This document shows, piece by piece, positions 20,147-56,589 of a stretch of DNA of 64,000 nt. The number at the start of each line of letters is the position of its first letter. The first letter of the stretch is position 1. Position numbers and translations under genes: made by a program. The stretch is taken from the NCBI RefSeq assembly GCF_009827615.1, contig NZ_WTYU01000002.1, forward strand, positions 124,001 through 188,000, given 5' to 3'. The notes beneath the pieces are model-generated. The model was not told the origin of the DNA. It saw only the letters and a program-made list of their open reading frames with translations, and ran no database searches. This DNA comes from Allopontixanthobacter confluentis. GTDB taxonomy: Bacteria; Pseudomonadota; Alphaproteobacteria; Sphingomonadales; Sphingomonadaceae.

Positions 20147-21186
20147 CCGATCAGATCAATATCCACACCCACGGTTCGGCCGGGCATCTCTCGCTCAACC
20201 GGCCCAAGGCGCTACACGCGCTGACGCTGGAAATGTGCCATGCGATGAGCGGCGCGCTTGCCACATGGGCAACCGATGATGCGGTCAAAACCGTCATCAT
20301 CGACCATGCCGAAGGGCGCGGTTTCTGTGCCGGCGGCGACATTGCCTTCCTGCGCAATTCCGCGCTGAACGATGGCGGCACCAGCGGGCGCCAGTTCTTC
20401 CATGACGAATATCAGCTGAACCACCAGCTGTTCACCTATCCCAAGCCGGTGGTCGCCTTCATGGATGGTATCACCATGGGCGGCGGTGTCGGCATCAGCC
20501 AGCCAGCCAAATACCGTGTCGCCACCGAACATACCAAATTCGCCATGCCGGAAACGGGCATCGGCCTGTTTCCCGATGTTGGCGGCGGCTGGTTTCTTTC
20601 GCGCCTTGGCGGGCGGATGGGCCAGTTTCTGGCGCTGACCGGCGCACGGCTGGATGGTGCGGAATGTCTGTGGTCCGGCCTTGCCACGCATTATCTGGCG
20701 AGCGAAAACCTGGCCGAAGCCAAGGCCCGCATCGCCGCAGGCCACGAGGCAGGCGGCGTGCTTGCCGCTTTGTCCGAAACCCCGCCGCCCGCACGGATCG
20801 AAGGCAATGCGGTCAGGATTGCCAGGCATTTCGCGTCCGACCGGTTCGAGGATATTCTGGCATCGCTGGAAGCCGAAGACAGCGAATGGTCGATCAAGGA
20901 ACTGGCGACCTTGCGCACCAAAAGCCCGCAGACCTGCAAGGTGGCCCTGCGCCAGCTGGCGCAAAGCGCGCAGCTGAGTGATTTTGCCGAAAATATGCGC
21001 ATGGAATATCGCATCGCCAGCCGGGTGCTGACCCGGCCCGATTTTGCCGAGGGCGTGCGCGCTGTCATCGTGGACAAGACGGGCAATCCGCAGTGGAACC
21101 CCGCCACACCCGAAGGCGTGACCGACGATCTGATCGACGCGATCTTTGCGCCCCTGCCCGAAAATGAAGAATGGAAGCCCCTATGA
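20143..21186 (+). CDS. 3-hydroxyisobutyryl-CoA hydrolase
   Basis: The 347-residue crotonase-fold protein is longer than typical enoyl-CoA hydratases because of the C-terminal hydrolase lid. GRGFCAGGD and TMGGGVGIS form the oxyanion pocket. [20 protein letters not shown] carries the Glu and Asp that define the hydrolase branch. It releases free 3-hydroxyisobutyrate from its CoA ester in valine breakdown. The gene overlaps both neighbours by ATGA. Confidence 0.9.
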
Positions 21187-21965
21187 GCTATGAAACGATC
21201 CTGACCGAAAAACGGGGTGCAGTCACGCTGATCACCCTCAACCGGCCACAGGCGCTCAATGCACTTAGCAGTGTGGTGCTGGACGAGTTGATCGAAGCCT
21301 TCGCCGCTTTTGAAGCGGATGACAGCCAGCGATGCGCCGTGCTGACCGGATCGGGCGAAAAGGCCTTTGCCGCAGGGGCCGATATCAAGGAAATGTCGGA
21401 CAAGCAGGCGGCAGATTTCTACCTCGAGGATTTCTTTTCCAAATGGACCAGCCATCTGGTCAAGGCCGTGCGCAAACCATGGATTGCGGCAGTCAACGGC
21501 TTTGCACTGGGCGGCGGCTGCGAGCTCGCCATGATGGCGGATTTCATCATCGCGTCCGACCAGGCGAAATTCGGCCAGCCGGAAATCAAGCTGGGCGTGG
21601 CGCCGGGCATGGGTGGCAGCCAGCGCCTGACCCGCGCCGTGGGCAAATCCAAGGCCATGGAAATGTGCCTGACCGGGCGCATGATGGGCGCAGAAGAAGC
21701 CGAACGGTCCAATCTGGTCGCCCGCGTTGTGCCGCATGATGAACTGATGACCGAAGCGATGAAAACCGCCACCACCATCGCTTCGATGCCGCCCATGGCA
21801 GCCATGGTGAACAAGGAAATGGTCAATTCCGCCTTCGAAACCGGCCTTGATCAGGGCGTGGCACTGGAACGTCGCCTGTTCCAGATCCTGACCGCCAGCG
21901 AAGACAAGGCCGAAGGCATGGCCGCCTTCATCGAAAAGCGCGAAGGCAAGTGGCAGGGGCGGTAA
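21183..21965 (+). CDS. Enoyl-CoA hydratase
   Basis: The 260-residue crotonase has the two catalytic regions: [16 protein letters not shown] (with AAGADIKEM for the oxyanion hole) and [20 protein letters not shown], where both Glu residues of a true hydratase are present. It hydrates the methacrylyl-CoA or other enoyl-CoA made by the dehydrogenase two genes earlier. The start at 21183 overlaps the preceding stop; a slightly longer in-frame start at 21171 is less likely. Confidence 0.92.
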
Positions 21966-40536: not shown

Positions 40537-43500
40537 TTGGAAGATATTTTCCTTTCCTACAATCGCGGCGATCAGGCATCAGCCGACCTGTTCGTGCGCG
40601 CTTTTGAAGCGGCAGGCCTGTCGGTGTGGTGGGACGTGTCGCTTCGCGCTGGCCAGGTTTATGATGAAGTGACGGAAAAAGCCCTGCGCGATGCACGCGC
40701 AGTGGTGGTCCTGTGGTCCGGTAATTCTGTCCAGTCACGGTGGGTCCGCGCCGAGGCAACGCTGGCGCAGCGGGCGGGCACATTTGTGCCTTGCATGATA
40801 GGGCCGTGCGAACGGCCGATCATGTTCGAACTGACCCAAACGGCAGATCTGACCAATTGGAACGGCGATGCAGAAGATCCGGCATGGCAGCATTTTGTCA
40901 GCCATGTGCGCGAATTCATCGGCCCGATGCACCGCGCGCGGCAGCCCCGATCACCCGCTGCCCCACCATCTGCTGTGCCATCATCTGGGCCATCTTCTGG
41001 GCCATCTGCAGCCCCATCTGCTGGGCAAATGCCCGGCGCTGCACCCCACGTAATTGCAAAACAGCATTTGCGGCATTCTGCCCCTTCCAGCGAAAGGCGG
41101 CAGATAACATTTCTGGCTGCCAGATTGTCCAACGGGCGCGAACTTGCATCGTCGATGGACCCGGAAGACTGGCACGAAATCCTGTCGTCCATCCAGCCGC
41201 CGCTCAACGCCATTGTCCAAAGTTTCGGCGCCACTGCGAAATGGGACGGCCACACCATCACCGCCCTGTTCGGCTATCCCGCAGCGCAGGAAGACGCTGC
41301 CCAGCGCGCCATCCGCGCGGCTCTCAGCCTGGTGGACCGCACCGCCACGCTGATGTCTGACCTTGTGGCGCAGACCGGCACCGCCATGCAGTTGCAGGCC
41401 GGTATTCACACCAGCGATGTGCTGGTAACAGCGGACCCCAGCGGCGAAACCGAAATGTTCGGCGATGGATCGGCCATTGCCAAAACCGCGCGCGATCTGG
41501 CCGGTGCTGGGACGGTCGTGGTGACCGAGCCTGTCCATCAACTGGCAGCGCGGGCATTCGCGCTGGAAAAAACAGGCGACCAAACCGGCCCCACGCAGTT
41601 TTACACCGTGGCCGGTGCGCGCAGTGGCGGCAGCACCATGCGCGGCTGGGCATCCAGCCTTGCCACCGGCTTTTTCGGCCGCGAGGACGAACTGGCCCAG
41701 ATCCAGCGCCGCTGGGCAAAATCACGCAGCGGACAAGGGCAATTCGTGCTGGTCAGCGGCGAGCCGGGAATTGGCAAGACGCGGCTGATTGACGAATTCA
41801 GCGCATCGCTGGCGCCAGATGATCATTACTGGGTCACGCTGCAGGGCGCATCGCTGTTCCCCAACACGCCCTACCATGCCATCGGGCAAATGCTGCTGCA
41901 CCTGGCGCAAGAACGCAGCAGCCATGACGACACGAGTGATCCGGCAGCGACGCTGGCCGATATTTTCGTAGAACTGGGCCTGCCTGCCCGTCTGCTGGGG
42001 CTGATTGCGCCGGTAATCGGCCTGACCCTGCCAGATGATGTTCCCGCGCCCAATATCACGCAGGAACAGCAGCGCAGCCAGCTGCTGTCCTCGCTGGTGG
42101 AAGCCACCTTCGCGCTGGCCAGAACAAAGCCACTGGTGCTGCTGGTGGATGATTGCCAGTGGATCGACCCGTCCAGCATGGAAATCATCCAGATGCTGGT
42201 GGAACAGTCCGACGATGACCGCCTGCTCATCATCGGCACGGCAAGACCGGAATTTGCTGCGCCCTGGTCGGAACGGGAAAACCACAGCCGGATCAATCTG
42301 GGCCGGATGGCCCAAGCTGAAATTCGCGCCATCATAACCGAAGCGGCGGGCGACGGCGGCATTGACACAGCAACCATCGAGACGGTGCTGGACCGCGCTG
42401 ATGGCGTGCCGCTATTTGCCGAAGAACTGGCGCGGCTGATTGCCACCAGCCACGGCGAAGGTGGTCAGGCTGCAATTCCCCCCACCTTGCGCAGCCTGCT
42501 CGCCGCGCGGCTGGACAGGCTGGGGCCAGCCCGCGAATTGCTGCAGATCGCGGCCATTTTGGGCCGTGATTTTCCCCATGCCCTGCTGGCCGCCATCAGC
42601 GACCATCCAGAAGCTGAAATGGGCGTTCTTCTGGCGCAATTGGCTGATGAACAATTGCTGTTCATGCGCGGCGCGCCGCCCAATTCCACCTACCGGTTCA
42701 AACATGCGCTGGTGCAGGATGCCGCCTACGATACGTTGCCCAAACGCCGTCAGCGCGAATTGCATGGCCTTGCTGCCCGCACCATCGTGGACCACTTTCC
42801 CGCCATTGCCGAAACCCAGCAGGAATTGCTCGCCACCCACTGGACCCGTGCGGGCAATGTGGCGCAAGCGGTGGCCGCATGGCAGAAAGCGGGCCTTGAT
42901 GCGTATGATCGCGGTGCCTGCAAGGAAGCGGCCGCCCATTTCCGCCATGGCCTTGCGGTGCTGGAAAAACAGCCGGCCGGCCCTGCGCGCGACGAGCAGG
43001 AAACTGGCCTGTGGAGCGCGCTTAACCGCGCCTTGCAGCAAACCCATGGCTATGCCGATCCGGTTACGGTGGAAGCCGCCAGCCGCGCGCTGGCGCTGGC
43101 GAAACAGGCCGGAATGCTGGGCAAGGTGCTGGTGGAGGAATCCCAATTGTGGCGCGCTGTCATCACCGCAGGCGATTACCAGCAGGCAGACGCCATAACC
43201 CAGCGGGTGATGAGCCTGAGCAAGGAAACTGCCGCAGGCGAAGAGATACCGTGGCTGTATTATTTCCATGCCAATGCGCGCATCCAGACCAGCTTTTATA
43301 CCGGCCGGCTGCGGGATTTTGAAACAGATTATGCCGGTTTGCAGCAGGTCATCGGCAAACAGGGGGTCAGCCATTCCCCGAGTGACGATGTGGTGGCCAT
43401 TGGCGTTGCCGCGCTTGCCGCGTGGGTATCGGGGCGGTCCGATCTTGGCGCCCAGCGTATCGCAGCGGCAATCCAGATCTCTGATAATGGCGGCCAGCCT

Positions 43501-44154
43501 TACGCAGCAGCGGTGGCCAATCATTTTGCTGGCACATTTTCCGCCTTTGAAGGCGATTATGAAGCGGCCATCGCGCATACCAGAACCGCGCTGGATGTGT
43601 GCGAGGAAAACGGCTTTGCCTATATCGCCCACCTGGCGCGGGCAAAATTTGGCTGGATTTCGGCGGCGGGCGGGTCGGGCGAAGATGATATTGCCACCAT
43701 GCGCAACACCATCGACCAGATGGCCAAAGCCAATGCGCTGGTCGGGCTGACAATCAACATGAACCGCATGGCCATGGCGATGGAAGCCCATGGCCGGTTG
43801 GATGAAGCCCTGGAAACGGTGGAAGAAGCGCTCATCGCCAATCCGCAGGAACGCGTGATGCGGCCCCAGAGCCTAGAAATTCGCGCCAGACTGAAACTGG
43901 CCGCAGGTGATGAGGGCGCTGCTGAGGCGGATTACCGCAGCGCCATCAGCATGGCGGCCGAAATGGGCGTGCTGGCGCTGGAATTGCCGCCAGCCATCCA
44001 GCTATCCCTCCATCTGGCCGATGGTGGCCGCCGCAGCGAAGCGGCGGATATTCTGCAAACCACGCTGGGCCGTGCGGGCCCGGACACGAACACTCCGGCG
44101 CTGGCGCCCGCGCGCGATGCGCTGGCGCAATTATCGGGCGCGCTCACCAGTTAG
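40537..44154 (+). CDS. TIR - inactive class III cyclase - STAND ATPase - TPR protein
   Basis: The 1205-residue protein has four parts. Residues 1-128 are a TIR domain (IFLSYNRGDQASADLF; WVRAE gives the conserved Glu73 of NAD-cleaving TIRs). A Pro/Ser/Gly/Ala linker follows (about 135-170). Residues 185-355 match class III nucleotidyl cyclases, but the first metal Asp is Arg196, the second is His239, and the Asn/Arg pair is absent (GSAIAKTARD), so cyclase activity is not expected. An ATPase follows with Walker A GEPGIGKT (408-415) and Walker B VLLVDD (534-539). About 550 residues of TPR-like helices close the protein. This is a STAND-like layout: effector, ATP switch, ligand-sensing repeats. 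The start is TTG at 40537, with GAGGA six bases upstream. Cyclase-ATPase-TPR proteins are common in alphaproteobacteria; the TIR addition suggests NAD-based signalling or defence, which is inference. Confidence 0.82.
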   Translation: MEDIFLSYNRGDQASADLFVRAFEAAGLSVWWDVSLRAGQVYDEVTEKALRDARAVVVLWSGNSVQSRWVRAEATLAQRAGTFVPCMIGPCERPIMFELTQTADLTNWNGDAEDPAWQHFVSHVREFIGPMHRARQPRSPAAPPSAVPSSGPSSGPSAAPSAGQMPGAAPHVIAKQHLRHSAPSSERRQITFLAARLSNGRELASSMDPEDWHEILSSIQPPLNAIVQSFGATAKWDGHTITALFGYPAAQEDAAQRAIRAALSLVDRTATLMSDLVAQTGTAMQLQAGIHTSDVLVTADPSGETEMFGDGSAIAKTARDLAGAGTVVVTEPVHQLAARAFALEKTGDQTGPTQFYTVAGARSGGSTMRGWASSLATGFFGREDELAQIQRRWAKSRSGQGQFVLVSGEPGIGKTRLIDEFSASLAPDDHYWVTLQGASLFPNTPYHAIGQMLLHLAQERSSHDDTSDPAATLADIFVELGLPARLLGLIAPVIGLTLPDDVPAPNITQEQQRSQLLSSLVEATFALARTKPLVLLVDDCQWIDPSSMEIIQMLVEQSDDDRLLIIGTARPEFAAPWSERENHSRINLGRMAQAEIRAIITEAAGDGGIDTATIETVLDRADGVPLFAEELARLIATSHGEGGQAAIPPTLRSLLAARLDRLGPARELLQIAAILGRDFPHALLAAISDHPEAEMGVLLAQLADEQLLFMRGAPPNSTYRFKHALVQDAAYDTLPKRRQRELHGLAARTIVDHFPAIAETQQELLATHWTRAGNVAQAVAAWQKAGLDAYDRGACKEAAAHFRHGLAVLEKQPAGPARDEQETGLWSALNRALQQTHGYADPVTVEAASRALALAKQAGMLGKVLVEESQLWRAVITAGDYQQADAITQRVMSLSKETAAGEEIPWLYYFHANARIQTSFYTGRLRDFETDYAGLQQVIGKQGVSHSPSDDVVAIGVAALAAWVSGRSDLGAQRIAAAIQISDNGGQPYAAAVANHFAGTFSAFEGDYEAAIAHTRTALDVCEENGFAYIAHLARAKFGWISAAGGSGEDDIATMRNTIDQMAKANALVGLTINMNRMAMAMEAHGRLDEALETVEEALIANPQERVMRPQSLEIRARLKLAAGDEGAAEADYRSAISMAAEMGVLALELPPAIQLSLHLADGGRRSEAADILQTTLGRAGPDTNTPALAPARDALAQLSGALTS

Positions 44155-44161
44155 GCGCGGT

Positions 44162-45091
44162 TTACCGGCGGGATAATTCGCGGGTATAATCCACCAGTGC
44201 AATCAGCACGGACGCGTCCCTGGTGTGGATTTGCGCTTCCCATTTGGCCTCCACTGCCAATTGGTCGAGATGGGCGTCAGCGGCGGGAAGCTGGGCAATC
44301 ATGGCCTGCGAAATGGCCTGCAATTCGTCGTCAGTCGGCTCTGCCTTGCAAAACATGTCCCTGATCGTTTCATCCTGAATGGCGAGCGCTGCAGGCAGCG
44401 TCAGGATGCCGTCGCGCAAATCTTCCTCGCCCCCGCCGCCAAGCGATGTCAGCCCCTTCACATCGCCCACATCATCGCAGCCATGATACAGCATCCCCAG
44501 CAGCCGGCCGAATTTTCGCAAGGTTTCATCGCGGGTGGCAAGGCAGGCGCAGGTTTCGAACATCGATCCTGTATCCTCGCCCGCAATGCCTTCCCAGTCG
44601 GCCACGCCCAGTGGCTGGCGCCGCAGCCGCCACTGCGCGCATTCCGCCACCCCCAGACGTTTGATCAGATCGGCAAACAGACGGATATCGTGCGGATCAT
44701 CCGCTGACATGGCAAAACCGTCTGCCACGATGAAGCCGGATGCCATCAGCGCCGGAAGCATCCCGAATTTGGAATGCATGGTCGGTTTGCCGCGCCGTTC
44801 GTCCGACTGGTCCAGAATATCATCAACCACCAGCGACATATTATGCATCATTTCCAGCACGGCGGCAGACCGGATGATGGTGTCGGGAATGGGCTGCTGG
44901 TAACTGGCCCGATAACAGCCAAAAACGGTCAGCGGCCGGAAATATTTCGACCCTGCATCAAACTGCCATTGCAGGAGCGGCTGCAGGTCACCTGCTGCCT
45001 CGGCAATCCAGCCATCCAGCAGGCTGCGCAACTTTGCCATTTCATCATCGAAGCCCAGTTGTGCCACGATCCCGGCTGTAATTGTGTCCAC
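44162..45091 (-). CDS. Polyprenyl (trans-isoprenyl) diphosphate synthase-like protein
   Basis: The 309-residue all-helical protein keeps both aspartate-rich motifs: SLVVDDILDQSDERRGKPTM (first DDxxD with the RRGKP that follows it) and YHGCDDVGDVKGL (second). These bind the magnesium-diphosphate of the allylic and IPP substrates, so activity is likely, though overall similarity to housekeeping IspA/IspB is modest. GTG at 45091 has AGGGGG six bases upstream; an in-frame ATG at 45127 is the alternative. Third gene of an operon with two flavoproteins. It converges on the TIR gene with seven bases between. Confidence 0.83.
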   Translation of the reverse strand: MDTITAGIVAQLGFDDEMAKLRSLLDGWIAEAAGDLQPLLQWQFDAGSKYFRPLTVFGCYRASYQQPIPDTIIRSAAVLEMMHNMSLVVDDILDQSDERRGKPTMHSKFGMLPALMASGFIVADGFAMSADDPHDIRLFADLIKRLGVAECAQWRLRRQPLGVADWEGIAGEDTGSMFETCACLATRDETLRKFGRLLGMLYHGCDDVGDVKGLTSLGGGGEEDLRDGILTLPAALAIQDETIRDMFCKAEPTDDELQAISQAMIAQLPAADAHLDQLAVEAKWEAQIHTRDASVLIALVDYTRELSRR

Positions 45092-45150
45092 AAAAAACCC
45101 CCTGATTACCCTTTTGTCACCCCGCATCCGGCACCTGGCGCGTGGCGCTT

Positions 45151-47367
45151 TTAACGCTTGGCGCGCCAGCGCCTGATATAGGGATCGGTGGCGGACCCGC
45201 CCTGCTTCTGCAGGGCCGAAATGATCGTGCCACCAATATTGGCCGCTGCGCCCAGCACCGACCCTGCCGCTGCAACGGCCGGGCTGACCGGCGTGCCATC
45301 TGCCTTCTTCATATCGCCCGACAAATGCTTGGAAGCGTAACTGGCGCATTCCCCCAACGCCATCAGCGTGGCAGCCCCCAGATCGATGACATGATCTTCA
45401 TGCCCGTCATCACCAGCATGCAGGCCTGCCGCATCTCCATCCGCAGCACCAGTCTGTCCGCGATGCTCTCCGTCGCCATCACCAACTGGCGGCAATGCTT
45501 TGTATAATATCCCCGTTTTGAGAGGGTCATCCTCACCCCCGTCGGACAGGGCGCGGACCAGCCAATAGGCACCTTTCAACCAGTCCATCGTAAATTGCAT
45601 CGGCACCAGCAGCAGATATTCCGATAGCGAAAATTCCGCCTTGCCCAAGGGTGTTGCGCCTTCGGCGAGATGCGCTTTCCACTGGTCATATGCGGTCATT
45701 GCCAGCGCGCCATAGGCCAGCGGCATCAGCATCAGCTTGGCCGCGCGGAAACTGGCGGTGCTGTAGGTGGTGTGCGCAATCACGCGGATTTCTGGCCCCC
45801 GAATGCCCTTGCCAGTCAGCGCCGCATCGCGTTTCTGCAACGCCTTTGCTGCCTGGAAGCCTGACTGCACCGCCCCTTCGACAGTGGCCATGTCGACATC
45901 GGTCCGGCACAGGTCGCCGGCGAAGAAAACCCGCGGCATGGTGTTAGGATAGGCCGCTTCCGGCCGCCAGCCCCAGCTGCCGACACTGTTGAGAAACAGC
46001 GGATAATCGACATTGCTGCGCGCATTGGTGCGGTGCCAGTCAATATCGCAATCAGGGTCGCGCCAATGTTTGCCAATGTTGATGCCGGGGTAGAATTCCT
46101 TCAACTCCTGCAGCATCAGCCACCCCTGCCCGTTGCAACTGGCCGACGGGATGGACGCTGCATCCGATGCCGCGATGATGATGGCGGTTTTGCCGTCAAA
46201 ATCATGGTCGGACCAGAGCTGGGAGATATCCAGAACAGTGAGGCCATATTTCGATCCGCCAAGGCCAACGTGATCCTTGGGAAACAGATCCAGCTTGTGC
46301 TTGAAATACACATCCACCACCGGGATCGGCACGGCTGACATACGCTGCAATTGCGATAGCGATTGTTCGCAGGAAATCAGCCGCTTGCCCTCGGACGTGT
46401 GCTCATCCCCGCCCATCACCAGACTTGTGAGCGCGGCTGGCCCCACGGCCATGACCAGATAATCATAGCTGTTCACATGCGCCCGCTTGTCAGCAGGATT
46501 GCGTTTCCAGCGGATTTTCGGCCTGTCATCGCACAGCCGGACAGTGGACACAGTGGCGCCGGTTTCAATCCTGCATCCGCGCTTTTCCAGCTCTTCGCGC
46601 AGCGGCGCAATCAGCTGTTTGTCCAGACTGCCTTTCAGCAACCACGAAAAGGGCGAATTATCCGGGAATTTGAAACAGTGGCGCAGGAAATTCTGATAGG
46701 TCGCCGCTGCTGTTTCCTCGCTCTGGATCGACCAGATCAGCGTCAGGATGTAATTTTCCATCTCTGCCACATTCTCGGTCGAATAGCCGCGCGAATAGAT
46801 GAAGCCGTTGACGTCCAGCTTGTTCAGCTGGTCAAAACTGCTGCGGTCAAACGGATGGGCCGCCAGATCCAGCATCGAATAGCCAAGCAGGAAGGTTTCT
46901 GCCGGTGACAGAAGGCCCGATTGCATATTCTCGACCAGCGCTTCCATCGATGTGTTGTTCAGCAGCCGGGAATATTGAGCATCGCCTTTCCTGAGCATGC
47001 TGACGCCCTGGCGCGGCGAAAAATAATCGTCCCGTTTGCGGCCCAGATCATGTTCATAAAGATCCCAGAAATTATCATACCAGTCACAGAACATATGCGG
47101 GTAGACGTCCTGTTCAATCGCGGTTTTGTCGGCATTTTGCTGATCGGTTTTGGGCGCATTTTCGCCCGGCACCACGCGTTTGATTGACGATGCATTGCCG
47201 CCCAGCCGGTCATGCGCTTCATACAAGGTCACATCGAAGCCTGCGCTGCACAGCCGCATGGCTGCGCTCATCCCTGCCAGCCCGCCGCCAATGATGGCGA
47301 CCGTGTTGCCACCATCAGCAGGTTGGGCAGTGCCACGCTTTGCGGAATGTACACGTGCACCTGTCAT
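45151..47367 (-). CDS. FAD-dependent amine-oxidase/desaturase-like protein with a novel C-terminal extension
   Basis: The 738-residue protein starts with a dinucleotide motif (VAIIGGGLAGMSAAMRLCSAG, then YEAHDRLGGNASS), as in phytoene desaturases, hydroxysqualene dehydroxylases and amine oxidases. The matching C-terminal FAD motif (PRVFFAGDLCRTDVDMATVEGAVQSG in two parts) lies near residues 475-500. About 230 further residues are unusual: hydrophobic stretches around LMLMPLAYGALAMTAY and EYLLLVPMQFTMDWLKGAYW, a Gly/Asp/His-rich linker (GDGDGEHRG to GDDGHEDH), and a final Ala/Gly helix. This suggests a membrane-associated enzyme on lipid substrates. It overlaps the reductase gene upstream by ATGA (47364-47367) and is 59 bases from the synthase gene. 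Confidence 0.8.
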   Translation of the reverse strand: MTGARVHSAKRGTAQPADGGNTVAIIGGGLAGMSAAMRLCSAGFDVTLYEAHDRLGGNASSIKRVVPGENAPKTDQQNADKTAIEQDVYPHMFCDWYDNFWDLYEHDLGRKRDDYFSPRQGVSMLRKGDAQYSRLLNNTSMEALVENMQSGLLSPAETFLLGYSMLDLAAHPFDRSSFDQLNKLDVNGFIYSRGYSTENVAEMENYILTLIWSIQSEETAAATYQNFLRHCFKFPDNSPFSWLLKGSLDKQLIAPLREELEKRGCRIETGATVSTVRLCDDRPKIRWKRNPADKRAHVNSYDYLVMAVGPAALTSLVMGGDEHTSEGKRLISCEQSLSQLQRMSAVPIPVVDVYFKHKLDLFPKDHVGLGGSKYGLTVLDISQLWSDHDFDGKTAIIIAASDAASIPSASCNGQGWLMLQELKEFYPGINIGKHWRDPDCDIDWHRTNARSNVDYPLFLNSVGSWGWRPEAAYPNTMPRVFFAGDLCRTDVDMATVEGAVQSGFQAAKALQKRDAALTGKGIRGPEIRVIAHTTYSTASFRAAKLMLMPLAYGALAMTAYDQWKAHLAEGATPLGKAEFSLSEYLLLVPMQFTMDWLKGAYWLVRALSDGGEDDPLKTGILYKALPPVGDGDGEHRGQTGAADGDAAGLHAGDDGHEDHVIDLGAATLMALGECASYASKHLSGDMKKADGTPVSPAVAAAGSVLGAAANIGGTIISALQKQGGSATDPYIRRWRAKR

Positions 47368-48863
47368 ACAGCTTCCCCTTCATGTGCAAACGGCCCGCGC
47401 AGTCGCGGATTTTCAGCCATCCGCAACGAGGGACCAAGGCGCGACGCCGATCGAACGATATCCTTCAGCCAGGCCAGATGCCATGCCGGATCATCTGCCA
47501 TGGAGGCCCGCCAGCCGCGCTGCCAGGCGGCAAAATCACCCGCCACCGGATTGGCGCTGACTGGCCTTCCGGTAACCGCGCTGGCAATCATGGCGGCGCC
47601 ATTTTGCGCCAGATGGCGCGCAATGCTCCACCAGATTTGACCGGCCATGGCCAATGGCTGGACATTCAGCCCGCCAAAGGCGGTGCCGGAAATTTCCCCG
47701 AATGCACGGTCATGCTGCGCCTTTTCAAACCCCTGCCGCGTCGAACTGAAGCCGAATTCGGAAAAATGCCGGTTACGCAAAATGGTCGCGCAAAAGACCA
47801 GATATTGCATCACCGGGTCAAAATGGGCGCGAAAATCGCGATCATATCGGGCCATGTCCGCCTGTTCGAATTGGCCGCTTGCCAGTGCGGCGGCCACCGT
47901 GCGCGCGCCAATGATGGCTGATTCCATGCCCTGCGTGATGCCTTCGCCTGTCATCGGATCGACAAAGCCGCCGGCATCGCCCACCAGAATGCCGCCCGCA
48001 AAATGGTTGCGGGTGATGCCGCCATACATATGCACCGCCCCGCCCAAAGGCTTGCTGGCAATGCGCGCATTGGCACAGCCGGGATGGCGGATACGCAGGC
48101 GCTCCACCGCATCGCGGAAACTTTCCTGCACGGACAGGCCGAACCGGTCGCATGTTTCACTGAGCAGGCCCACACCCATGTTGGCGCGGCCCCCATGCAT
48201 CGGAAACATCCAGCCATAACCGGGGTAATGGTCTTCATCGAACCAAATGGTGGCTTCGCCCTCGTCCACTTCCACCCCTTCGATATAGACCCGCTGCGAT
48301 ACGCCGATATGGCGCCGGTCGGTACGGCGCAGGCCTGCACTATGGGCAACCATGGACTGGACGCCGTCTGCACCCACCACGATGGGCGCGGTCAATTCGC
48401 TGGTGCCGCCATGTTCCTTGATCGTGACGTGCATCAGCCCGCCCCTGCGTTCGACCGAAGACGCCGCGGTTGACCGGAACACGGTAGCGCCGGTTTTTTC
48501 CGCATTGGCTAGCAGCACAGTATCCAGCTCATGACGGGGGATGATGAACCCGTGGCCAGGCATTCCGTGGGCGCCATCATAATAGGGAATATCGCCGCGA
48601 TAGGGCATATGCGGGCCGAAATAGACCCGGTTATGGGTAATCGGCAGCCTGCTGCCGAACGCCAGATCACCGGTGCAGCCCATGGCTTGCAGAATGCGCA
48701 GACCGGCAGGTTCGACAAAATCGCCGCAGACTTTTTCACGCGGAAAACTGGCCCGTTCAATGACGGCAACCGAAATGCCCCGCCGCGCCAGCGACCACCC
48801 CATGGCAGAGCCAGCAGGGCCACCGCCGACGACTATTGCGTCAAACCGGCTCAATCGTGCCAT
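47364..48863 (-). CDS. Geranylgeranyl reductase-family flavoprotein
   Basis: The 499-residue protein has the group 1 flavoprotein signatures VVGGGPAGSAMGWSLARRG, REKVCGDFVEPAGL (the PxxKxCG motif of geranylgeranyl reductases), VVGADGVQS and VGDAGGFVDPMTGEGI. Family members reduce isoprenoid double bonds or halogenate/hydroxylate aromatic substrates. About 100 C-terminal residues beyond the usual 400 are of unknown role. It is the first gene of the operon; the start lies 237 bases from a divergent channel gene. The chemistry together with the synthase and the second flavoprotein suggests a modified isoprenoid product. Confidence 0.82.
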   Translation of the reverse strand: MARLSRFDAIVVGGGPAGSAMGWSLARRGISVAVIERASFPREKVCGDFVEPAGLRILQAMGCTGDLAFGSRLPITHNRVYFGPHMPYRGDIPYYDGAHGMPGHGFIIPRHELDTVLLANAEKTGATVFRSTAASSVERRGGLMHVTIKEHGGTSELTAPIVVGADGVQSMVAHSAGLRRTDRRHIGVSQRVYIEGVEVDEGEATIWFDEDHYPGYGWMFPMHGGRANMGVGLLSETCDRFGLSVQESFRDAVERLRIRHPGCANARIASKPLGGAVHMYGGITRNHFAGGILVGDAGGFVDPMTGEGITQGMESAIIGARTVAAALASGQFEQADMARYDRDFRAHFDPVMQYLVFCATILRNRHFSEFGFSSTRQGFEKAQHDRAFGEISGTAFGGLNVQPLAMAGQIWWSIARHLAQNGAAMIASAVTGRPVSANPVAGDFAAWQRGWRASMADDPAWHLAWLKDIVRSASRLGPSLRMAENPRLRGPFAHEGEAV

Positions 48864-49638: not shown

Positions 49639-51159
49639 ATGAGCCCTGATCCTGAAAATGTGCCGGTCATTGTCGGTGTCGGACAAATCAACGACCGTCC
49701 GGACACACCGCAAGGCGGCCTGCATTCCGGCGAGTTGATGGTGGCGGCGCTTGAGCGGGCTGATGCTGATGCAGGCGGCAACTGGCTGGGCGATTGCCAA
49801 TCGCTCGCACTGGTGGACCAGATTTCGTTCCGCAGCCTAAACCCGCTGACAGATTATGTGGCCGATGCCTGCGGGATGACACCCGTCATTGCCTATCAGA
49901 GCAAGGGCCCCAATGGCGACAGCCCGATCCTGCTGCTGAATGAAGCTGCGAATCGCATCGGGTCGGGCGAAATCAGCATTGCCGCCGTCACCGGCGGCGA
50001 AGCCTTGCGAACGGCGATGCAACTGGCGCGGGCTGCTGCGGCAGACAAGCATGCCGAAACCAATGCCGTGCGCGCTGTGTCCAGCCGCAAGACGCCCGGC
50101 TACCGCCAGACCTATGGCCTGTCCGCGCCGGTGGATTTCTACCCGCTTTATGAAAACGCCGGACGCGCAGCCTATGGCCAGACATTGGCAGAAGCGCAGG
50201 CCGAAAGCGGGGCCATCTGGTCGCAATTTTCAGAGGTGGCCAATGCCAATCCCCATGCCTGGATTCACCAACCGCGCAGCGCGGCTGAAATTATTGAACC
50301 CACGGCTGACAACCGCCCGATTGCGCACCCCTATACCAAGTTGATGGTCGCCAATTCCTCGGTCAATCAGGGCGCTGCATTCATCATTGCCAGCCTGGCC
50401 GAAACGCGCCGGCGCGGCGTGCCGCAAGAACGGCTGATCCATATCGGCTATGGCGCAGCTGCGCATGAAAGCGACGATTTTCTGGCGCGTGACCGGTATG
50501 ACCAGTCGCCCAGCATGGAGGTTTCCCTGCTGAAAACGCTGGAACTGAACCGGCTGTCGGTGAGTGATTTTGACCATGTGGAACTTTACAGCTGTTTTCC
50601 CTGCGTGCCGAAAATGGCACGGCGCATCATAAACTGGCCATTGGACAGGCCCGCCAGCGTGTTCGGCGGGCTGACATTCGGCGGCGGGCCAATCGGCAAT
50701 TATATGAGCCATGCGGTGGCCAGCATGGTCGATTGCCTGCGGGAAACCGGCGGCAAGGGGCTGCTATTCGCCAATGGCGGCTATGCCACGCATAATCACA
50801 CAATCGTGCTTTCAGCACAGCAGATGGACGGGGTCAGTTTTCCGCAGGACTTTGACTTTCAGGCCGAGGCCGATGCAGCGCGCGGCCCGGTGCCGGAACT
50901 GGAAAAGCATTATTGCGGGCCTGCCACCATTGAAAGCTACACCGTCATCTACGCGCGCGACGGTACGCCGGGGCATGGCGTGATTGTGGCGCGCACCCCT
51001 GGCGGGCAGCGCACCCTTGCCAATGTTCCTGCAAGTGACACGCAGGCAATTGCGATACTGACATCCGGAATGCACGAACCTGTCGGCATGGCGGGCCAGA
51101 TCAGCGCCCAAAATACCGATGCCGAAAACAGCATCCGGAACTGGTCCTTCACTGCATGA
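49639..51159 (+). CDS. Thiolase-fold protein lacking the nucleophilic cysteine
   Basis: The 506-residue protein matches SCP2/acetyl-CoA acetyltransferase-like proteins: VIVGVGQINDRP at the start, the helix containing VTGGEALRTA, and VELYSCFPCVPKM where thiolases have the NEAF/HxxF region. The position that normally carries the acylated Cys (CGSG-type) reads SKGPNGDSP, so classical thiolysis is not expected. The last 80 residues resemble a small OB-like domain (IYARDGTPGHGVIVARTPGG). The following CoA-transferase gene overlaps its stop by ATGA, so the two act together. Start at 49639; a TTG four codons upstream is possible. Confidence 0.75.
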   Translation: MSPDPENVPVIVGVGQINDRPDTPQGGLHSGELMVAALERADADAGGNWLGDCQSLALVDQISFRSLNPLTDYVADACGMTPVIAYQSKGPNGDSPILLLNEAANRIGSGEISIAAVTGGEALRTAMQLARAAAADKHAETNAVRAVSSRKTPGYRQTYGLSAPVDFYPLYENAGRAAYGQTLAEAQAESGAIWSQFSEVANANPHAWIHQPRSAAEIIEPTADNRPIAHPYTKLMVANSSVNQGAAFIIASLAETRRRGVPQERLIHIGYGAAAHESDDFLARDRYDQSPSMEVSLLKTLELNRLSVSDFDHVELYSCFPCVPKMARRIINWPLDRPASVFGGLTFGGGPIGNYMSHAVASMVDCLRETGGKGLLFANGGYATHNHTIVLSAQQMDGVSFPQDFDFQAEADAARGPVPELEKHYCGPATIESYTVIYARDGTPGHGVIVARTPGGQRTLANVPASDTQAIAILTSGMHEPVGMAGQISAQNTDAENSIRNWSFTA

Positions 51160-53465
51160 GCGCAAATGCGCCCGCTGTGGATGGTGAAGGCGGCGCAGTG
51201 ACAGGGCGGCCGCTGGCAGGCATCCGGCTGCTTGAACTCACGCAAGGGGCGATGGCTGCCATTGCGCGGTATTTTGCGGAATTGGGCGCTGACGTGATCC
51301 GGCTGGAACCTGCAAAGGGCGCAGCCGACCGGCGTGAAGGAATGATGGCGGCAAGCCCTTTCTCAGACGCCGCCAGCATCCCCTTTCACGCCGCCAATCT
51401 GGGCAAGCGGTCCGCGCCGGACACCTGTTTCGATACGCTGGTCGCGGATGCTGACATTCTGGTCATGCCGCACGGCGCGCGAGATGCCGAGGCGTTGCGC
51501 AAGGCGTATCCCCGGCTGGTCATCCTGTCCGTATCCGATTTTGGCGATACGCCGGGTTTTGCCCATTGGAAGGGGTCGGGCCCGGTCTTTCACGCCTTGT
51601 CGGGTGAATTGTCACGGTCTGGCCTGCCGGGCCGTGCGCCGCTGTTGCCGCCCGGCGATCTGGCAGTGGAATGCGCGATTGTTCAGGCTGTCTATGTGAC
51701 CATGGTTGCCTGCTGGCAGGCATTGCAGACCGGGCGCGGCGACCATGTGGATTTTTCCATTCTGGACGGCGCGGTGCAAGCGCTGGACCCGGGATATGGC
51801 GTGGGCGGCAGCGCCGCGGCAGGGGTGCGGCCCAGCGCTTTGCCGCGCGGGCGCCCGAATGCGGCGCATCTGTATCCGATCCTGCCGTGCAAGGATGGTT
51901 TTGTCCGCTTTTGTGTGATGGCCCCGCGCCAATGGCAGGGCCTGCTGCGCTGGATGGGGGAGCCTGCCGAATTTGCCGACCCTTCTTTCAATGCAATCAC
52001 CACGCGCTATGGATCGCCTGATCTGGTTCCTGCCATGGCCCGCTTTCTGGCCGGCATGACACGGCTGGAGGTAGAAGCAGGCGCACAGCAGCATGGCGTT
52101 CCGGCAGCGGCCCTGCTTGATCTGGACGAAGCGCTGCAAAGCCCGCAAATGACAGCGCGCAGCCCGTTCAAACCGGTGGAAATTGCACCGGGCCTTGCCG
52201 CCCCCTTCCCCGATGGGGTGATGGAAATTGACGGGTGCCGGATGGGTATTCGCAGCCCCGCCCCCTCGCTGCCAGACCGTAGCACAGTCTGGCATGAAAG
52301 CCCGCCGATGCCGCGCGGCAATGCGGCACCGCAGCGGCCCCTGAACGGCATCAAGGTGCTGGATTTTGGTGTCATCGTGGTGGGATCGGAAGCCGGACGG
52401 ATGCTGGCGGATCAGGGCGCGGATGTGATCAAGGTGGAATCCTCCACCTATCCCGATGGCCTGCGCCAGACAGCCGGGCCTGAACCTGTCTCTGCCTCCT
52501 ATGCCTCGGGCAATCGTAACAAGAAAAGTATCGCGATCAACATCAGGGACCCGCGCGGCAAGGCGCTGCTGCTGGATCTGGTGCGGCAATCCGATGTCAT
52601 CCTGTCCAATTTCAAAGGTGGCACGCTGGAATCGCTCGGGCTTGACCATGCCGCGCTCAAACATATCAATCCGCGCATTATCGTGACTGACAGTTCCGCC
52701 TATGGCCCGACCGGCCCCTGGGCGCGCCGGATGGGCTATGGGCCGCTGGTGCGCGCGTCTGCCGGGCTGACCATGCAGTGGCGCTATCCCCATGAAGAGA
52801 CGAGCTTTTCAGACGCAATCACCATTTATCCCGACCATGTCGCTGGCCGGATTGTCGCAATTGGGGTGCTGGCCTTATTGATCCGGCGGCGGCGCACCGG
52901 GCGCGGCGGACGGGTCAGTGTGAGCCAGGCCGAGGTTATGTTATGCCATCTGGGCAAGCAGATTGCTGCCAGGGCGCTGGGACTGGCGGGCGCGACGATT
53001 ACCAATGCGGACGAACATTCGCAGGTCTATCCCTGCGCAGGTGACGATGATTGGTGCGTTGTCACCATCCGCGGTGATGCCGACCGGCAGGCAATTTCCC
53101 GTGTGACAGGTGATGTTCCCCTGAACCAGTGGCTGGCGCACAGGCCCGCCAGCGAAGCGATGCAGAAGTTGCAGGAGGCGGGCGTTGCCGCAGGGGCAAT
53201 GCTGCGAATATCCGAGCTTCCCGATTTTGCCTATTTCAAGGCGCGCGGTTTTTTCCGCAGCACGCGACATCCCCATATCGCCGAAGCCGTTATCATGGAA
53301 AACGCGCCCGCACGCTTTGCGATGATGCCCGACCCGGCAGATGGCCCGGCCCCGCTTCTGGGCGAACATACGGAGGAATTGCTGCGCGAACGCCTTGGCA
53401 TCAGCGATGATGAATTGGCAGACTTGCTGGCACAAGAGGTGGTGGAACAGCACGCGGGAGGGTGA
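51156..53465 (+). CDS. Tandem-fused family III CoA-transferase (CaiB/BaiF)
   Basis: The 769-residue protein contains two CaiB/BaiF domains (about 18-365 and 390-755), joined by a Pro-rich linker. Each has a candidate catalytic Asp: Asp168 in LLPPGDLAVE and Asp560 in IYPDHVAG. The N-terminal domain is more diverged, lacking the GNRNKKSIAIN loop that the second has. Family III enzymes move CoA between carboxylates through an aspartyl-CoA ester and are usually dimers of 400-residue chains that interlock; this fusion would be an internal dimer. It is translationally coupled to the Cys-less thiolase and converges on an acyl-CoA dehydrogenase gene. Confidence 0.85.
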   Translation: MSANAPAVDGEGGAVTGRPLAGIRLLELTQGAMAAIARYFAELGADVIRLEPAKGAADRREGMMAASPFSDAASIPFHAANLGKRSAPDTCFDTLVADADILVMPHGARDAEALRKAYPRLVILSVSDFGDTPGFAHWKGSGPVFHALSGELSRSGLPGRAPLLPPGDLAVECAIVQAVYVTMVACWQALQTGRGDHVDFSILDGAVQALDPGYGVGGSAAAGVRPSALPRGRPNAAHLYPILPCKDGFVRFCVMAPRQWQGLLRWMGEPAEFADPSFNAITTRYGSPDLVPAMARFLAGMTRLEVEAGAQQHGVPAAALLDLDEALQSPQMTARSPFKPVEIAPGLAAPFPDGVMEIDGCRMGIRSPAPSLPDRSTVWHESPPMPRGNAAPQRPLNGIKVLDFGVIVVGSEAGRMLADQGADVIKVESSTYPDGLRQTAGPEPVSASYASGNRNKKSIAINIRDPRGKALLLDLVRQSDVILSNFKGGTLESLGLDHAALKHINPRIIVTDSSAYGPTGPWARRMGYGPLVRASAGLTMQWRYPHEETSFSDAITIYPDHVAGRIVAIGVLALLIRRRRTGRGGRVSVSQAEVMLCHLGKQIAARALGLAGATITNADEHSQVYPCAGDDDWCVVTIRGDADRQAISRVTGDVPLNQWLAHRPASEAMQKLQEAGVAAGAMLRISELPDFAYFKARGFFRSTRHPHIAEAVIMENAPARFAMMPDPADGPAPLLGEHTEELLRERLGISDDELADLLAQEVVEQHAGG

Positions 53466-54664: not shown

Positions 54665-55813
54665 TCAGGCAACGGCACCTGCATCACGCAGGCGGGCAAT
54701 TTCTTGGGTGTCCAATCCGATGGACGCAAGCACGGCATCCGTGTCGGTGCCTGCTGCTTTTTCAGCCACCGGTGCCGGCGCCGCCGTGCCGCTGAAACGC
54801 GGTGCCGGGGCGGGCTGCGTATCGCCTGCCACCTTCACAAATGTCCCGCGGGCGGCATTATGCGGATGGGCGGGCGCCTCGGCCATGGACAGGACGGGCG
54901 CGAAGCACACATCGGTATGTTCCATGGCCGCGCACCATTCCTCGCGCGTTTTCGTCCTGAACAGCTGCGTCAGCCGGTCTTTCAGCGCGGGCCACGCCGC
55001 AGGGTTCATTTGCGCGTCAAATTCAGCATCGTCCGACAGCCCCGCAATCCGCCGCAATTCGGCGTAAAACTGCGGTTCGATCGACCCGATGGAGATATAT
55101 TCGCCATCAACACATTCATAAGTGTCATAGAAATGCGCGCCTGTATCGAGCAGATTGCCGCCGCGCGTATTGGACCATGTGCCGGCATTGCGCATCCCCC
55201 AGATCATGCCCATCAGCAGGGCCGATCCATCGGTCATGGCTGCATCCACAATCTGGCCAGTGCCGCCGCGCGCCACATTCAGCAGCGCGCTGACCATGCC
55301 GAATGCCAGCACCATGCCGCCGCCGCCAAAATCACCCACCATATTGATCGGCGGGGTCGGTTTCTCCCCCTTGCGGCCATAATGGTACAGCGCGCCGGAC
55401 AGGGAGATATAGTTGATGTCATGCCCGGCCGCCTTGGCATAGGGACCATCCTGCCCCCAGCCTGTCATTCGGCCATAGACCAGCCTGGGATTATCAGCGT
55501 GGAGCACTTCCGGCCCCAGCCCGAGCCGTTCCATCACGCCAGGGCGATAGCCTTCGATGATGCCATCGGCACTGGCGCACAGCTTGCGCGCAACGGCCAC
55601 CCCTTCGGCTGATTTGAGATCGAGCGCGATGGACTGGCGTGACCGTGCCAGCACGTCCTTGCCGCCCATTGAACCCACGCCGCCGCGCTTGCCTGCGGGC
55701 CGGTCAATGCGGATGACTTGTGCACCGTGGTCCGCCAGCATCATGCCGCAAAACGGCCCCGGGCCAATCCCTGCAAATTCGACGATCCGCAGCCCTGCCA
55801 ATGCACCTGCCAT
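54665..55813 (-). CDS. Alpha-methylacyl-CoA racemase-like CoA-transferase family III protein
   Basis: The 382-residue protein has the AMACR active-site residues at the expected spacing: His131 (AGHDINYI), Asp161 (VGDFGGGG) and Glu246 (IGSIEPQFY). That catalytic set distinguishes racemases from plain CoA-transferases. It would invert the 2-methyl centre of branched acyl-CoAs, as in pristanic or sterol side-chain degradation. It lies between a crotonase gene (14 bases upstream) and an acyl-CoA dehydrogenase gene (25 bases downstream). Confidence 0.88.
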   Translation of the reverse strand: MAGALAGLRIVEFAGIGPGPFCGMMLADHGAQVIRIDRPAGKRGGVGSMGGKDVLARSRQSIALDLKSAEGVAVARKLCASADGIIEGYRPGVMERLGLGPEVLHADNPRLVYGRMTGWGQDGPYAKAAGHDINYISLSGALYHYGRKGEKPTPPINMVGDFGGGGMVLAFGMVSALLNVARGGTGQIVDAAMTDGSALLMGMIWGMRNAGTWSNTRGGNLLDTGAHFYDTYECVDGEYISIGSIEPQFYAELRRIAGLSDDAEFDAQMNPAAWPALKDRLTQLFRTKTREEWCAAMEHTDVCFAPVLSMAEAPAHPHNAARGTFVKVAGDTQPAPAPRFSGTAAPAPVAEKAAGTDTDAVLASIGLDTQEIARLRDAGAVA

Positions 55814-55827
55814 GCTCGCGCCCCGCC

Positions 55828-56589
55828 CTACTTGCCAGTCCAGTTGGGGGCGCGCTTTTCGGCAAAGGCGGCTGCCCCCTCGCGCGCGTCGGGTGACATG
55901 AAGACCTGCGGCAGCAGCTTGGCCTGTTCCTCATATCGCTTGTCGAGCGGCCAGCCGCGCGATTCGTCCATGATCTGCTTGGAAACCCGCACGGCAATGG
56001 GGCCATTGGAGGTGATAGACCGGGCCAGTTCAATCGCGGCATCCAGCGCCGGGCCGTCTGTGACGCGGTTGATCATGCCCAGGTCATAAGCGCGCGCGGC
56101 ATCAATGAATTCGCCTGTCAGCGCCAGTTCCATCGCCACCTTGTGGGGGATGATATCGGGCAGGACCATCAGGCCGCCTGCCGCTGCGGCAAGCCCGCGT
56201 TTCGCTTCCGGAATGCCGAATTTGGACTTGCTGTTTGCCACCACCAGATCGCACGCAATCATCAGTTCCAGACCGCCTGCTAGCGCATAGCCTTCGACCG
56301 CGGCAATGAGCGGTTTCACCGGTTTCTTTTCGGTCAGACCGCCAAAACCGCGGCCGGGAACCGACGGGCTTTCACCGCGCAGGAAACCCTTGAGGTCCAT
56401 GCCGGAACAGAATGTGCCGCCAGCCCCTGTCAGAATGCCGACCCGCAGATTTTCATCGGAATCGAGCCGGTCCAGCGCCGCCGCGATGCCTTCCGCAGCC
56501 GCCTTGTTCATGGCGTTCTTCGCTTCAGGCCGGTTGATGGTGATGATGAGGATGCCGTCTTCCTCGCGCGTCAGCAGTTCGTCGCTCAT
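55828..56589 (-). CDS. Enoyl-CoA hydratase/isomerase family protein
   Basis: The 253-residue crotonase has ITINRPEAKNAMN, GTFCSGMDLKGF (oxyanion loop) and GIPEAKRGLAAAAGG, in which only the first of the two hydratase glutamates is clearly placed (PEAK) and the second is replaced by Ala/Gly. It may therefore be an isomerase or other crotonase. The ATG at 56589 is preferred over an upstream in-frame one that adds 33 hydrophobic residues. First gene of the three-gene block, divergent from the thiolase gene 119 bases away. Confidence 0.85.
   Translation of the reverse strand: MSDELLTREEDGILIITINRPEAKNAMNKAAAEGIAAALDRLDSDENLRVGILTGAGGTFCSGMDLKGFLRGESPSVPGRGFGGLTEKKPVKPLIAAVEGYALAGGLELMIACDLVVANSKSKFGIPEAKRGLAAAAGGLMVLPDIIPHKVAMELALTGEFIDAARAYDLGMINRVTDGPALDAAIELARSITSNGPIAVRVSKQIMDESRGWPLDKRYEEQAKLLPQVFMSPDAREGAAAFAEKRAPNWTGK

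What the first reader, a model, noticed from the sequence alone, without database searches (positions are those of the whole stretch)
49639..53465. Cys-less thiolase-fold protein coupled to a double CoA-transferase
The thiolase-like protein has SKGPNGDSP where the acylated Cys should be, so it cannot do normal thiolysis. Its stop overlaps the start of a 769-residue fusion of two CaiB domains, each with a candidate Asp (168, 560), the first domain being more diverged. The pair could perform a non-canonical acyl-CoA step, for example decarboxylation or aldol-type cleavage, with the transferase feeding it CoA esters.
Basis: partly seen in the sequence, partly recalled or inferred. Interest (0 to 1): 0.5.

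Follow-up and report, generated by a model that had tools for sequence, protein, structure and literature searches.

The report
Orphan thiolase-like enzyme paired with hydratase
A widespread bacterial protein that databases call a thiolase lacks the thiolase's key cysteine, carries instead the tyrosine-cysteine pair of a recently described steroid-cleaving aldolase, and often sits beside or is fused to a hydratase, so it probably breaks carbon chains by an aldol-type reaction that can now be tested.

Summary
The observation largely holds. The protein at 49639-51159 has Gly93 where thiolases have their acylated Cys, and its stop overlaps the start of a double CaiB protein. It belongs to a known family of unknown function, TLP1 (PF18313; M. 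smegmatis structure 4EGV, no thiolase activity). Three points were not in the finding. (1) In 45 TLP1s, Gly93 and Tyr317-Ser318-Cys319 never vary; the Tyr and Cys align with the catalytic Tyr302/Cys304 of the bile-acid aldolase CtSal. (2) A crotonase-type enoyl-CoA hydratase is the more frequent partner: adjacent in 53 of 80 named loci (double CaiB: 21) and fused to TLP1 in two plasmid genes; elsewhere acyl-CoA ligases stand in for the transferase. The window's member of that hydratase clade lies 5 kb away. (3) TLP1's C-terminal barrel resembles the OB fold of DUF35 domains, which tether such aldolases to hydratases. Asp560 of the transferase is conserved; Asp168 is not. Best reading: activation, hydration, retro-aldol cleavage. 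Activity is not shown, and many TLP1 loci lack the hydratase. A 2015 beta-valine paper lists a TLP1-hydratase pair whose hydratase handles a 3-methyl-branched CoA ester, hinting at 3-hydroxy-3-methylacyl-CoA as substrate.

The parts
49639..51159 (+). TLP1-family thiolase-fold protein, 506 aa (thiolase domain about residues 1-395, C-terminal barrel about 425-506)
   Evidence: PF18313 61 bits against cut-off 26.1; 4egv phmmer 8.6e-47; model pLDDT 90, pTM 0.91, Foldseek 4egv 3e-40
49915..49917 (+). Gly93 codon, at the position of the thiolase nucleophilic Cys
   Evidence: Gly in 45 of 45 TLP1s; aligned with the Cys in EAACASG of 6esq
50587..50595 (+). Tyr317-Ser318-Cys319 (YSCF), candidate retro-aldol base (Tyr) and acid (Cys)
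   Evidence: 45 of 45; aligned with YDCF of TbSLP (1.3e-5) and YDCY of CtSal (1.1e-4)
50911..51156 (+). C-terminal OB-like barrel (TLP1_add_C)
   Evidence: isolated model pLDDT 90.5; after 4egv the best VIA row is the DUF35 domain 6ok1_B, Z 7.5, tied with other OB-like chains
51156..53465 (+). double class III CoA-transferase, 769 aa; domain 1 about 51192-52265, domain 2 about 52329-53462; conserved Asp560 in domain 2, no conserved Asp at that column in domain 1
51156..51159 (+). ATGA start-stop overlap between TLP1 and the CoA-transferase
55828..56589 (-). EchA1-type enoyl-CoA hydratase, in the clade of the TLP1-linked hydratases (ORF extends to 56688)
   Evidence: starred clade of 25 rows (97*) that holds the 19 partner-type linked hydratases put in the tree, the two fused ones lying just outside; Glu141/Glu161 present, numbered on the 286-aa ORF; closest PDB 3qxi EchA1 1.9e-92
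54665..55813 (-). second, single-domain CaiB family protein in the hydratase gene block
   Evidence: PF02515 280.9 bits
53497..54738 (-). acyl-CoA dehydrogenase in the same block
   Evidence: PF00441/PF02770/PF02771
56709..57974 (+). ordinary thiolase, divergent from the hydratase gene
   Evidence: PF00108 and PF02803; NF004682 811 bits

Best explanation
TLP1 is a thiolase-fold retro-aldolase that works with a crotonase-type enoyl-CoA hydratase. An acid is activated to its CoA ester (in the window by the double CaiB transferase, elsewhere by an acyl-CoA ligase), dehydrogenated if needed, and hydrated to a 3-hydroxyacyl-CoA by the hydratase. Tyr317 of TLP1 then takes the proton of the 3-hydroxyl, the C2-C3 bond breaks, and Cys319 protonates the enolate, giving an aldehyde or ketone and acetyl-CoA (or propionyl-CoA). 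This would suit substrates whose C3 is fully substituted, such as 3-methyl-branched acids, because a tertiary alcohol cannot be oxidised for thiolysis. Shown by sequence: family membership, loss of the nucleophile, invariance of the Tyr-x-Cys pair and its alignment to CtSal, the hydratase linkage and fusions. Inferred: the reaction, the substrate and any physical complex.
For: Gly93 45 of 45 and Y-S-C 45 of 45. Alignment to CtSal YDCY and TbSLP YDCF; in CtSal Y302F, C304A and C304S abolish retro-aldol activity and a Gly stands at the nucleophile position (PMC12329534). Hydratase within 400 bp on the same strand in 53 of 80 named loci (55 counted, less L108 and L111, which are another ECH clade). 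Of 11 plasmid records matched ten were fetched: a separate linked hydratase in five (L157, L158, L159, L161, L165; in L158 only a 39-residue match) and a fusion in two more (L162, L164). On a TLP1 tree of 63 rows the linkage needs at least 9 changes and occurs in both deep clades. Linked hydratases keep both catalytic Glu: 61 and 62 of 66 rows, window included, the misses being three rows of the other clade and the short rows L082 and L158. The C-terminal domain resembles DUF35 OB folds. In Phenylobacterium (L130) the cluster reads dehydrogenase, dehydrogenase, AMP-ligase, hydratase, TLP1.
Against: No activity is known to me for any TLP1. The middle residue is Ser, not the Asp of YDCY/YDHF. 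MsTLP1 is a monomer (PMC3406046) whereas Sal and Ltp2 are dimers. 27 of 80 named loci lack the partner hydratase next door (three of them have under 0.7 kb of sequence upstream of TLP1), as do 20 of 20 loci taken from relatives and 18 of 20 drawn across the phylum (17 with no hydratase hit and L142 with one of the other clade). In 12 relatives that hold both genes only G003 and G020 have them within 6 kb; four have them over 0.6 Mb apart and six on different contigs. Z of the C-terminal match is under 8 and tied with unrelated OB-like chains. The motif alignment E-values are modest, and the model is about as close to ordinary thiolases as to the aldolases.
Confidence: 0.5

Rival explanations
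1. TLP1 is a non-catalytic partner: it binds acyl-CoA and stabilises or steers the hydratase (or the related beta-aminoacyl-CoA ammonia lyase), with no chemistry of its own.
For: MsTLP1 showed no thiolase activity. BvaB2, the hydratase-family protein whose gene overlaps a TLP1 gene in Pseudomonas SBV1, deaminates its substrate in vitro (0.9 U/mg) without TLP1 (PMC4619459).
Against: Y-S-C, GGL and G380 are invariant in 45 of 45, at positions that match the active-site motifs of thiolases; TLP1 also occurs without a linked hydratase.
Confidence: 0.2
2. TLP1 catalyses another carbon-carbon step on acyl-CoA without a covalent Cys: decarboxylation of a malonyl-type ester, or hydrolytic rather than thiolytic cleavage of a 3-ketoacyl-CoA.
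For: TbSLP decarboxylates malonyl-CoA, very slowly (reported in PMC12329534). Some TLP1 neighbourhoods hold enzymes that make 3-ketoacyl-CoA: an SDR next to the hydratase in L157 and a 3-hydroxyacyl-CoA dehydrogenase about 6 kb from TLP1 in L159.
Against: CtSal, with the same Tyr/Cys pair, gave no acetyl-CoA from malonyl-CoA. In the L130 run (two dehydrogenases, ligase, hydratase, TLP1) no 3-hydroxyacyl-CoA dehydrogenase stands among the genes.
Confidence: 0.12
3. It is a steroid side-chain aldolase of the Ltp2/Sal kind in the strict sense.
For: Fold and motif likeness.
Against: No DUF35 OB domain (PF01796) found in this genome (0 of 1; the control rang in 6 of 14 genomes), and the linked hydratase is a crotonase, not MaoC. 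A different family, PF18313.
Confidence: 0.08
4. It is an ordinary acetyl-CoA acetyltransferase, as the NCBIfam names say.
For: NF006103-NF006106 carry that name, though the window protein is below all their cut-offs (657 against 684 for the best).
Against: No nucleophilic Cys, no CxG Cys, and the published relative is inactive.
Confidence: 0.02

Closest known systems
MsTLP1 (4EGV), thiolase-like protein type 1, PF18313
   Same: Whole-length fold (VIA Z 44.5 over 444 residues, 30% identity), Gly for Cys, YSCF, GGL, NGG, C-terminal barrel
   Different: The function of MsTLP1 was left unknown; genomic partners and the aldolase comparison are added here
CtSal with CtShy-DUF35 (9MYR), bile-acid side-chain aldolase
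   Same: Thiolase fold (Z 36.4), Gly at the nucleophile position, Tyr-x-Cys pair, hydratase partner, OB domain
   Different: OB domain is built in, without the DUF35 zinc finger; linked hydratase is crotonase-type; Ser for Asp in the motif; 18% identity in the VIA alignment
TcLtp2 with ChsH2-DUF35 (6OK1)
   Same: Fold (Z 35.4); Tyr of its YDHF motif corresponds to Tyr302 of CtSal and so to Tyr317; hydratase coupling
   Different: His in YDHF where TLP1 has Cys; its DUF35 domain is carried by the hydratase subunit ChsH2; the residue matching its Tyr344 was not tested
TbSLP (5AB4-5AB7), SCP2-thiolase-like protein
   Same: YDCF against YSCF, no nucleophile; proposed as an aldolase in PMC12329534
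   Different: No associated DUF35/OB domain
Benzylsuccinate CoA-transferase (9fn0), two-subunit class III transferase
   Same: Domain 2 aligns best with chain B, which reads YTDH where domain 2 reads YPDH; domain 1 matches chain A (5.6e-17) better than chain B (1.4e-8)
   Different: The window protein is one chain; domain 1 is about as close to other CaiB proteins (4ed9, 10uh)
Beta-valine cluster of Pseudomonas SBV1 (PMC4619459, ORF11-ORF12/BvaB2)
   Same: TLP1 gene overlapping an enoyl-CoA hydratase family gene
   Different: ORF11 is in the table only; BvaB2 was assayed as an ammonia lyase, and the cluster also holds 3-methylcrotonyl-CoA carboxylase and HMG-CoA lyase genes

Membership tests
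TLP1 (PF18313) | TLP1_add_C domain after a thiolase-fold domain | tested here: met
   61 bits, cut-off 26.1; fold
TLP1 (PF18313) | Gly for the nucleophilic Cys; YSCF, GGL and NGG motifs | tested here: met
   window has all four; in the family Gly93, YSC, GGL and G380 are 45 of 45, Asn379 is 33 of 45
TLP1 (PF18313) | monomer without thiolase activity | not testable with these tools
   published for MsTLP1
canonical / SCP2 thiolase | nucleophilic Cys of the CxS motif | tested here: not met
   Gly93
canonical / SCP2 thiolase | Cys of the CxG motif and His of the GHP motif | tested here: not met
   Asn379 and GGL (motif mapping from PMC3406046)
Sal/Ltp2 steroid aldolase | catalytic Tyr in YDxF/Y, with Gly at the nucleophile position | tested here: met
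   Tyr317 aligned to CtSal and TbSLP; Gly93. Direct alignment to Ltp2's motif was not printed
Sal/Ltp2 steroid aldolase | Cys304 of Sal | tested here: met
   Cys319 aligned
Sal/Ltp2 steroid aldolase | DUF35 domain carried by a MaoC-type hydratase | tested here: not met
   PF01796 0 of 1 in the genome; window hydratase is PF00378, fused one a crotonase
Sal/Ltp2 steroid aldolase | retro-aldol activity on steroid CoA esters | not testable with these tools
   needs enzyme assay
class III CoA-transferase | CoA_transf_3 family | tested here: met
   398.5 bits, three stretches
class III CoA-transferase | catalytic Asp | tested here: met
   domain 2 Asp560 23 of 23; not met in domain 1 (Asp168 4 of 23, and not at that column)
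crotonase hydratase (EchA1-type) | two catalytic Glu | tested here: met
   Glu141 and Glu161 of the window ORF

The most novel reading that the evidence does not exclude
TLP1 with its EchA1-type hydratase is a third, unrecognised kind of hydratase-aldolase system, with a built-in OB domain in place of DUF35 and a crotonase in place of MaoC. It would let bacteria get past a 3-methyl (tertiary C3) block in branched or isoprenoid acids by cleaving 3-hydroxy-3-methylacyl-CoA to a methyl ketone and acetyl-CoA, without the carboxylation used in leucine-type pathways. (Against the last clause: the SBV1 cluster that gives the substrate hint also carries the carboxylase route.)
Probability: 0.25. Interest if true: 0.8.

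Novelty: new variant of a known kind. Interest (0 to 1): 0.58.

Why it matters
TLP1 has had a crystal structure since 2012, and I found no function for it in the searches named below; current family models name it 'acetyl-CoA acetyltransferase', which the sequence contradicts. A concrete reaction, catalytic pair and partner make the question testable in one round of assays. If right, many genes that carry this name need a new one, and a route for breaking C3-branched acyl chains by retro-aldol cleavage comes into view.

Tried and rejected
Rejected: Asp168 as a catalytic residue. Rejected: L108, L111 and L142 as partner hydratases; they are another clade and lack both Glu. Rejected as evidence: antisense ORF calls c24/c35, which hid the hydratase gene; tblastn replaced them. 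My first Glu pattern (41 of 66) was too strict; the column count replaced it.

Led nowhere: papers naming Rv1866 with Rv1867, 0 found (that these are a double CaiB-TLP1 pair in M. tuberculosis is recalled, untested); papers on a Sphingomonas operon, 0. The neighbours scanned beside TLP1 genes without a linked hydratase are mixed (acyl-CoA dehydrogenases, thioesterases, a CaiB protein, a copper chaperone, a peptidase and others; 20 proteins, three of them from loci with a hydratase), so no single partner explains them. Whether the OB domain sits on the thiolase fold as DUF35 does could not be tested, since no coordinates were at hand. No background rate for 'gene next to a crotonase' was measured, and kinship among the 80 loci was not corrected for. 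The co-occurrence test on 59 genomes, own included (TLP1 at E 1e-25 or better, hydratase at 1e-60: 13 both, 10 TLP1 only, 4 hydratase only, 32 neither; Fisher p 3e-4), ignores kinship, and within the family it weakens (35 genomes, p 0.018). In searches of this open-access library (listings, of which the papers named in the report were opened) I saw no paper that names TLP1 an aldolase or describes a TLP1-hydratase system.
Full report
What is there. The window lies in a 2.93 Mb genome. Its nearest named match is an Erythrobacteraceae bacterium, and other matches include Sphingomonas and Sphingopyxis. The gene at 49639-51159 encodes 506 aa with one Pfam domain, TLP1_add_C (PF18313); the closest solved structure is MsTLP1, 4EGV. 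It is the only match at E 0.001 or better in the genome. NCBIfam's best model is NF006106 'acetyl-CoA acetyltransferase', 657 bits against a cut-off of 684. The next gene starts inside its stop codon (ATGA) and encodes two fused class III CoA-transferase domains.

The missing cysteine. In a profile alignment the invariant Gly93 stands opposite the nucleophilic Cys of a thiolase (6esq). Among 45 TLP1s that I chose from the 130 found, Gly93, Tyr317, Ser318, Cys319, GGL343-345 and Gly380 are invariant, and His358 is kept in 44. By pattern, YSCFP occurs in 126 of 130 TLP1s; the other four read YSCFA (three) or YSCYA. The MsTLP1 paper (abstract, passages and sections 8, 12, 13 and 14 read) reports the same Cys to Gly change, the motifs YSCF, GGL and NGG, no thiolase activity, a monomer, and an unknown function.

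The aldolase comparison. With a 57-column local profile of 14 sequences, YSCF aligns to YDCF of TbSLP (E 1.3e-5) and YDCY of CtSal (E 1.1e-4). The CtSal paper (passages and section 9 read) shows that Tyr302 and Cys304 of YDCY are needed for retro-aldol cleavage, that a Gly stands at the thiolase nucleophile position, and proposes that TbSLP is an aldolase. It does not mention TLP1 or 4EGV. The AlphaFold2 model (pLDDT 90, pTM 0.91) matches 4EGV first. The next structures include archaeal thiolases (7yvy, 6esq/6et9), TbSLP, CtSal (VIA Z 36.4), benzoylsuccinyl-CoA thiolase (36.4) and TcLtp2 (35.4), close to ordinary thiolases at 33-34, so fold alone does not single out the aldolases.

The C-terminal barrel. 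Folded alone (pLDDT 90.5), its best VIA row after 4EGV is the DUF35 domain of the Ltp2 complex (Z 7.5). CtSal's DUF35 domain (6.9) and that of an archaeal thiolase complex (6.9) are near the top, tied with ribosomal-protein chains and the DUF35 protein Trf (7.0 each) and with ModG (6.8). Foldseek gives nothing under 1e-3 but 4EGV; Trf follows at 1.1e-2, then a plasmid protein (PrgE) and DUF2500, then 6ok1 and 7pxp at 5e-2 to 1e-1. That Trf is a DUF35 protein is from PMC6996347 (passages). So it is an OB-like fold similar to DUF35, without proof of descent. The genome has no PF01796 match.

The partner. Eighty named TLP1 loci were fetched, the best 80 of 466. A crotonase-type hydratase lies within 400 bp on the same strand in 55 of 80. 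Two of these (L108, L111) belong to another clade, which leaves 53. The double CaiB protein lies within 1.5 kb in 21 of 80, and both partners in 17; in these 17 the order is double CaiB, hydratase, TLP1, in three Novosphingobium loci (L081, L093, L127) double CaiB stands directly before TLP1, and in L051 it follows TLP1 as in the window. On plasmids of Methylobacterium, Massilia and Sinorhizobium (L157, L159, L165), and in one phylum-level genome (L152), the order is ligase, TLP1, hydratase; in Nocardia it is TLP1, hydratase. In Novosphingobium EMRT-2 and Sphingobium TomTYG65 the two are one protein (784 and 781 aa), followed by a CoA transferase. A tree of 55 hydratases puts the window's own (55828-56589, minus strand) in a starred clade of 25 rows with the 19 partner-type linked hydratases that I put in the tree; the two fused ones branch next to that clade (support 82). 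Its nearest linked relative is the Nocardia one (99*), and six of the seven other hydratase-like places of this genome, those that I put in, fall outside. The TLP1 tree of 63 chosen rows has two deep clades with linkage in both, and at least 9 changes.

Results against. None of the 20 loci taken from relatives, and 3 of 20 drawn across the phylum, have a hydratase hit within 400 bp, one of the three being of the other clade. In 12 relatives holding both genes only G003 and G020 have them within 6 kb. The TLP1s of the large genomes L147-L151 have no hydratase hit beside them, and the neighbours scanned at other such loci are mixed. The order TLP1 then double CaiB, that of the finding, was seen only in the window and G003 (= L051).

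The CoA-transferase. Domain 2 carries the conserved Asp560 (IYPDH or VYPDH, 23 of 23). Domain 1 has Asp168 in 4 of 23 and no conserved acid in columns 164-173; its pairwise alignments put the column of the Asp of 4hl6 and 10uh three residues on, at Val171. The layout resembles two-subunit benzylsuccinate CoA-transferase, where chain A has Tyr at that column in the alignment. I saw only sequence alignments and a search listing for that enzyme.

Mechanism. Activation, hydration and retro-aldol cleavage explain the lost nucleophile, the kept Tyr-Cys pair and the hydratase. In Phenylobacterium (L130) the run is two dehydrogenases resembling IpdE2/PimD and PimC (below those models' cut-offs), an AMP-ligase, hydratase and TLP1, with no 3-hydroxyacyl-CoA dehydrogenase among them; the Methylobacterium cluster does include an SDR, and the Massilia record has a 3-hydroxyacyl-CoA dehydrogenase and a thiolase a few kb away. 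The substrate hint comes from PMC4619459 (abstract, passages, sections 17 and 18 read). [quoted passage not shown] A text search for ORF11 found no discussion of it. BvaB2 is reported as 48% identical to 3R0O, which ranks third for the Methylobacterium partner hydratase. From this I infer 3-hydroxy-3-methylacyl-CoA as a possible TLP1 substrate; no experiment tests it, and the same cluster holds the usual carboxylase and HMG-CoA lyase genes.

Noticed in passing
window 40537-44154 (+): 1205-aa protein with an N-terminal TIR domain and an AAA_16 ATPase domain, possibly a signalling or defence protein.
   Followed up: no
window 44162-48863 (-): Overlapping run of a polyprenyl synthetase, an amine-oxidase/HpnE-like flavoprotein and a geranylgeranyl-reductase-family flavoprotein: an isoprenoid cluster just upstream of the finding.
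   Followed up: partly
L053:2383-4916: An APH-type kinase and a 376-aa protein with no Pfam match at 1e-5 stand upstream of double CaiB-hydratase-TLP1 in a Sphingomonas; related genes recur in other Sphingomonas loci (clusters c14 and c18).
   Followed up: no
L157 and L158: Methylobacterium aquaticum carries TLP1 on two plasmids; on one it stands near a separate thiolase-domain plus OB-fold pair.
   Followed up: no
NCBIfam NF006103-NF006106: Equivalog models name TLP1 proteins acetyl-CoA acetyltransferase although the catalytic Cys is absent: likely a widespread misannotation.
   Followed up: partly
G000:C2:145195-145962 (window 21195-21962): The genome's second-best match to the Methylobacterium partner hydratase lies in another part of the window, beside a further hydratase-like place at window 20185-20832.
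   Followed up: no
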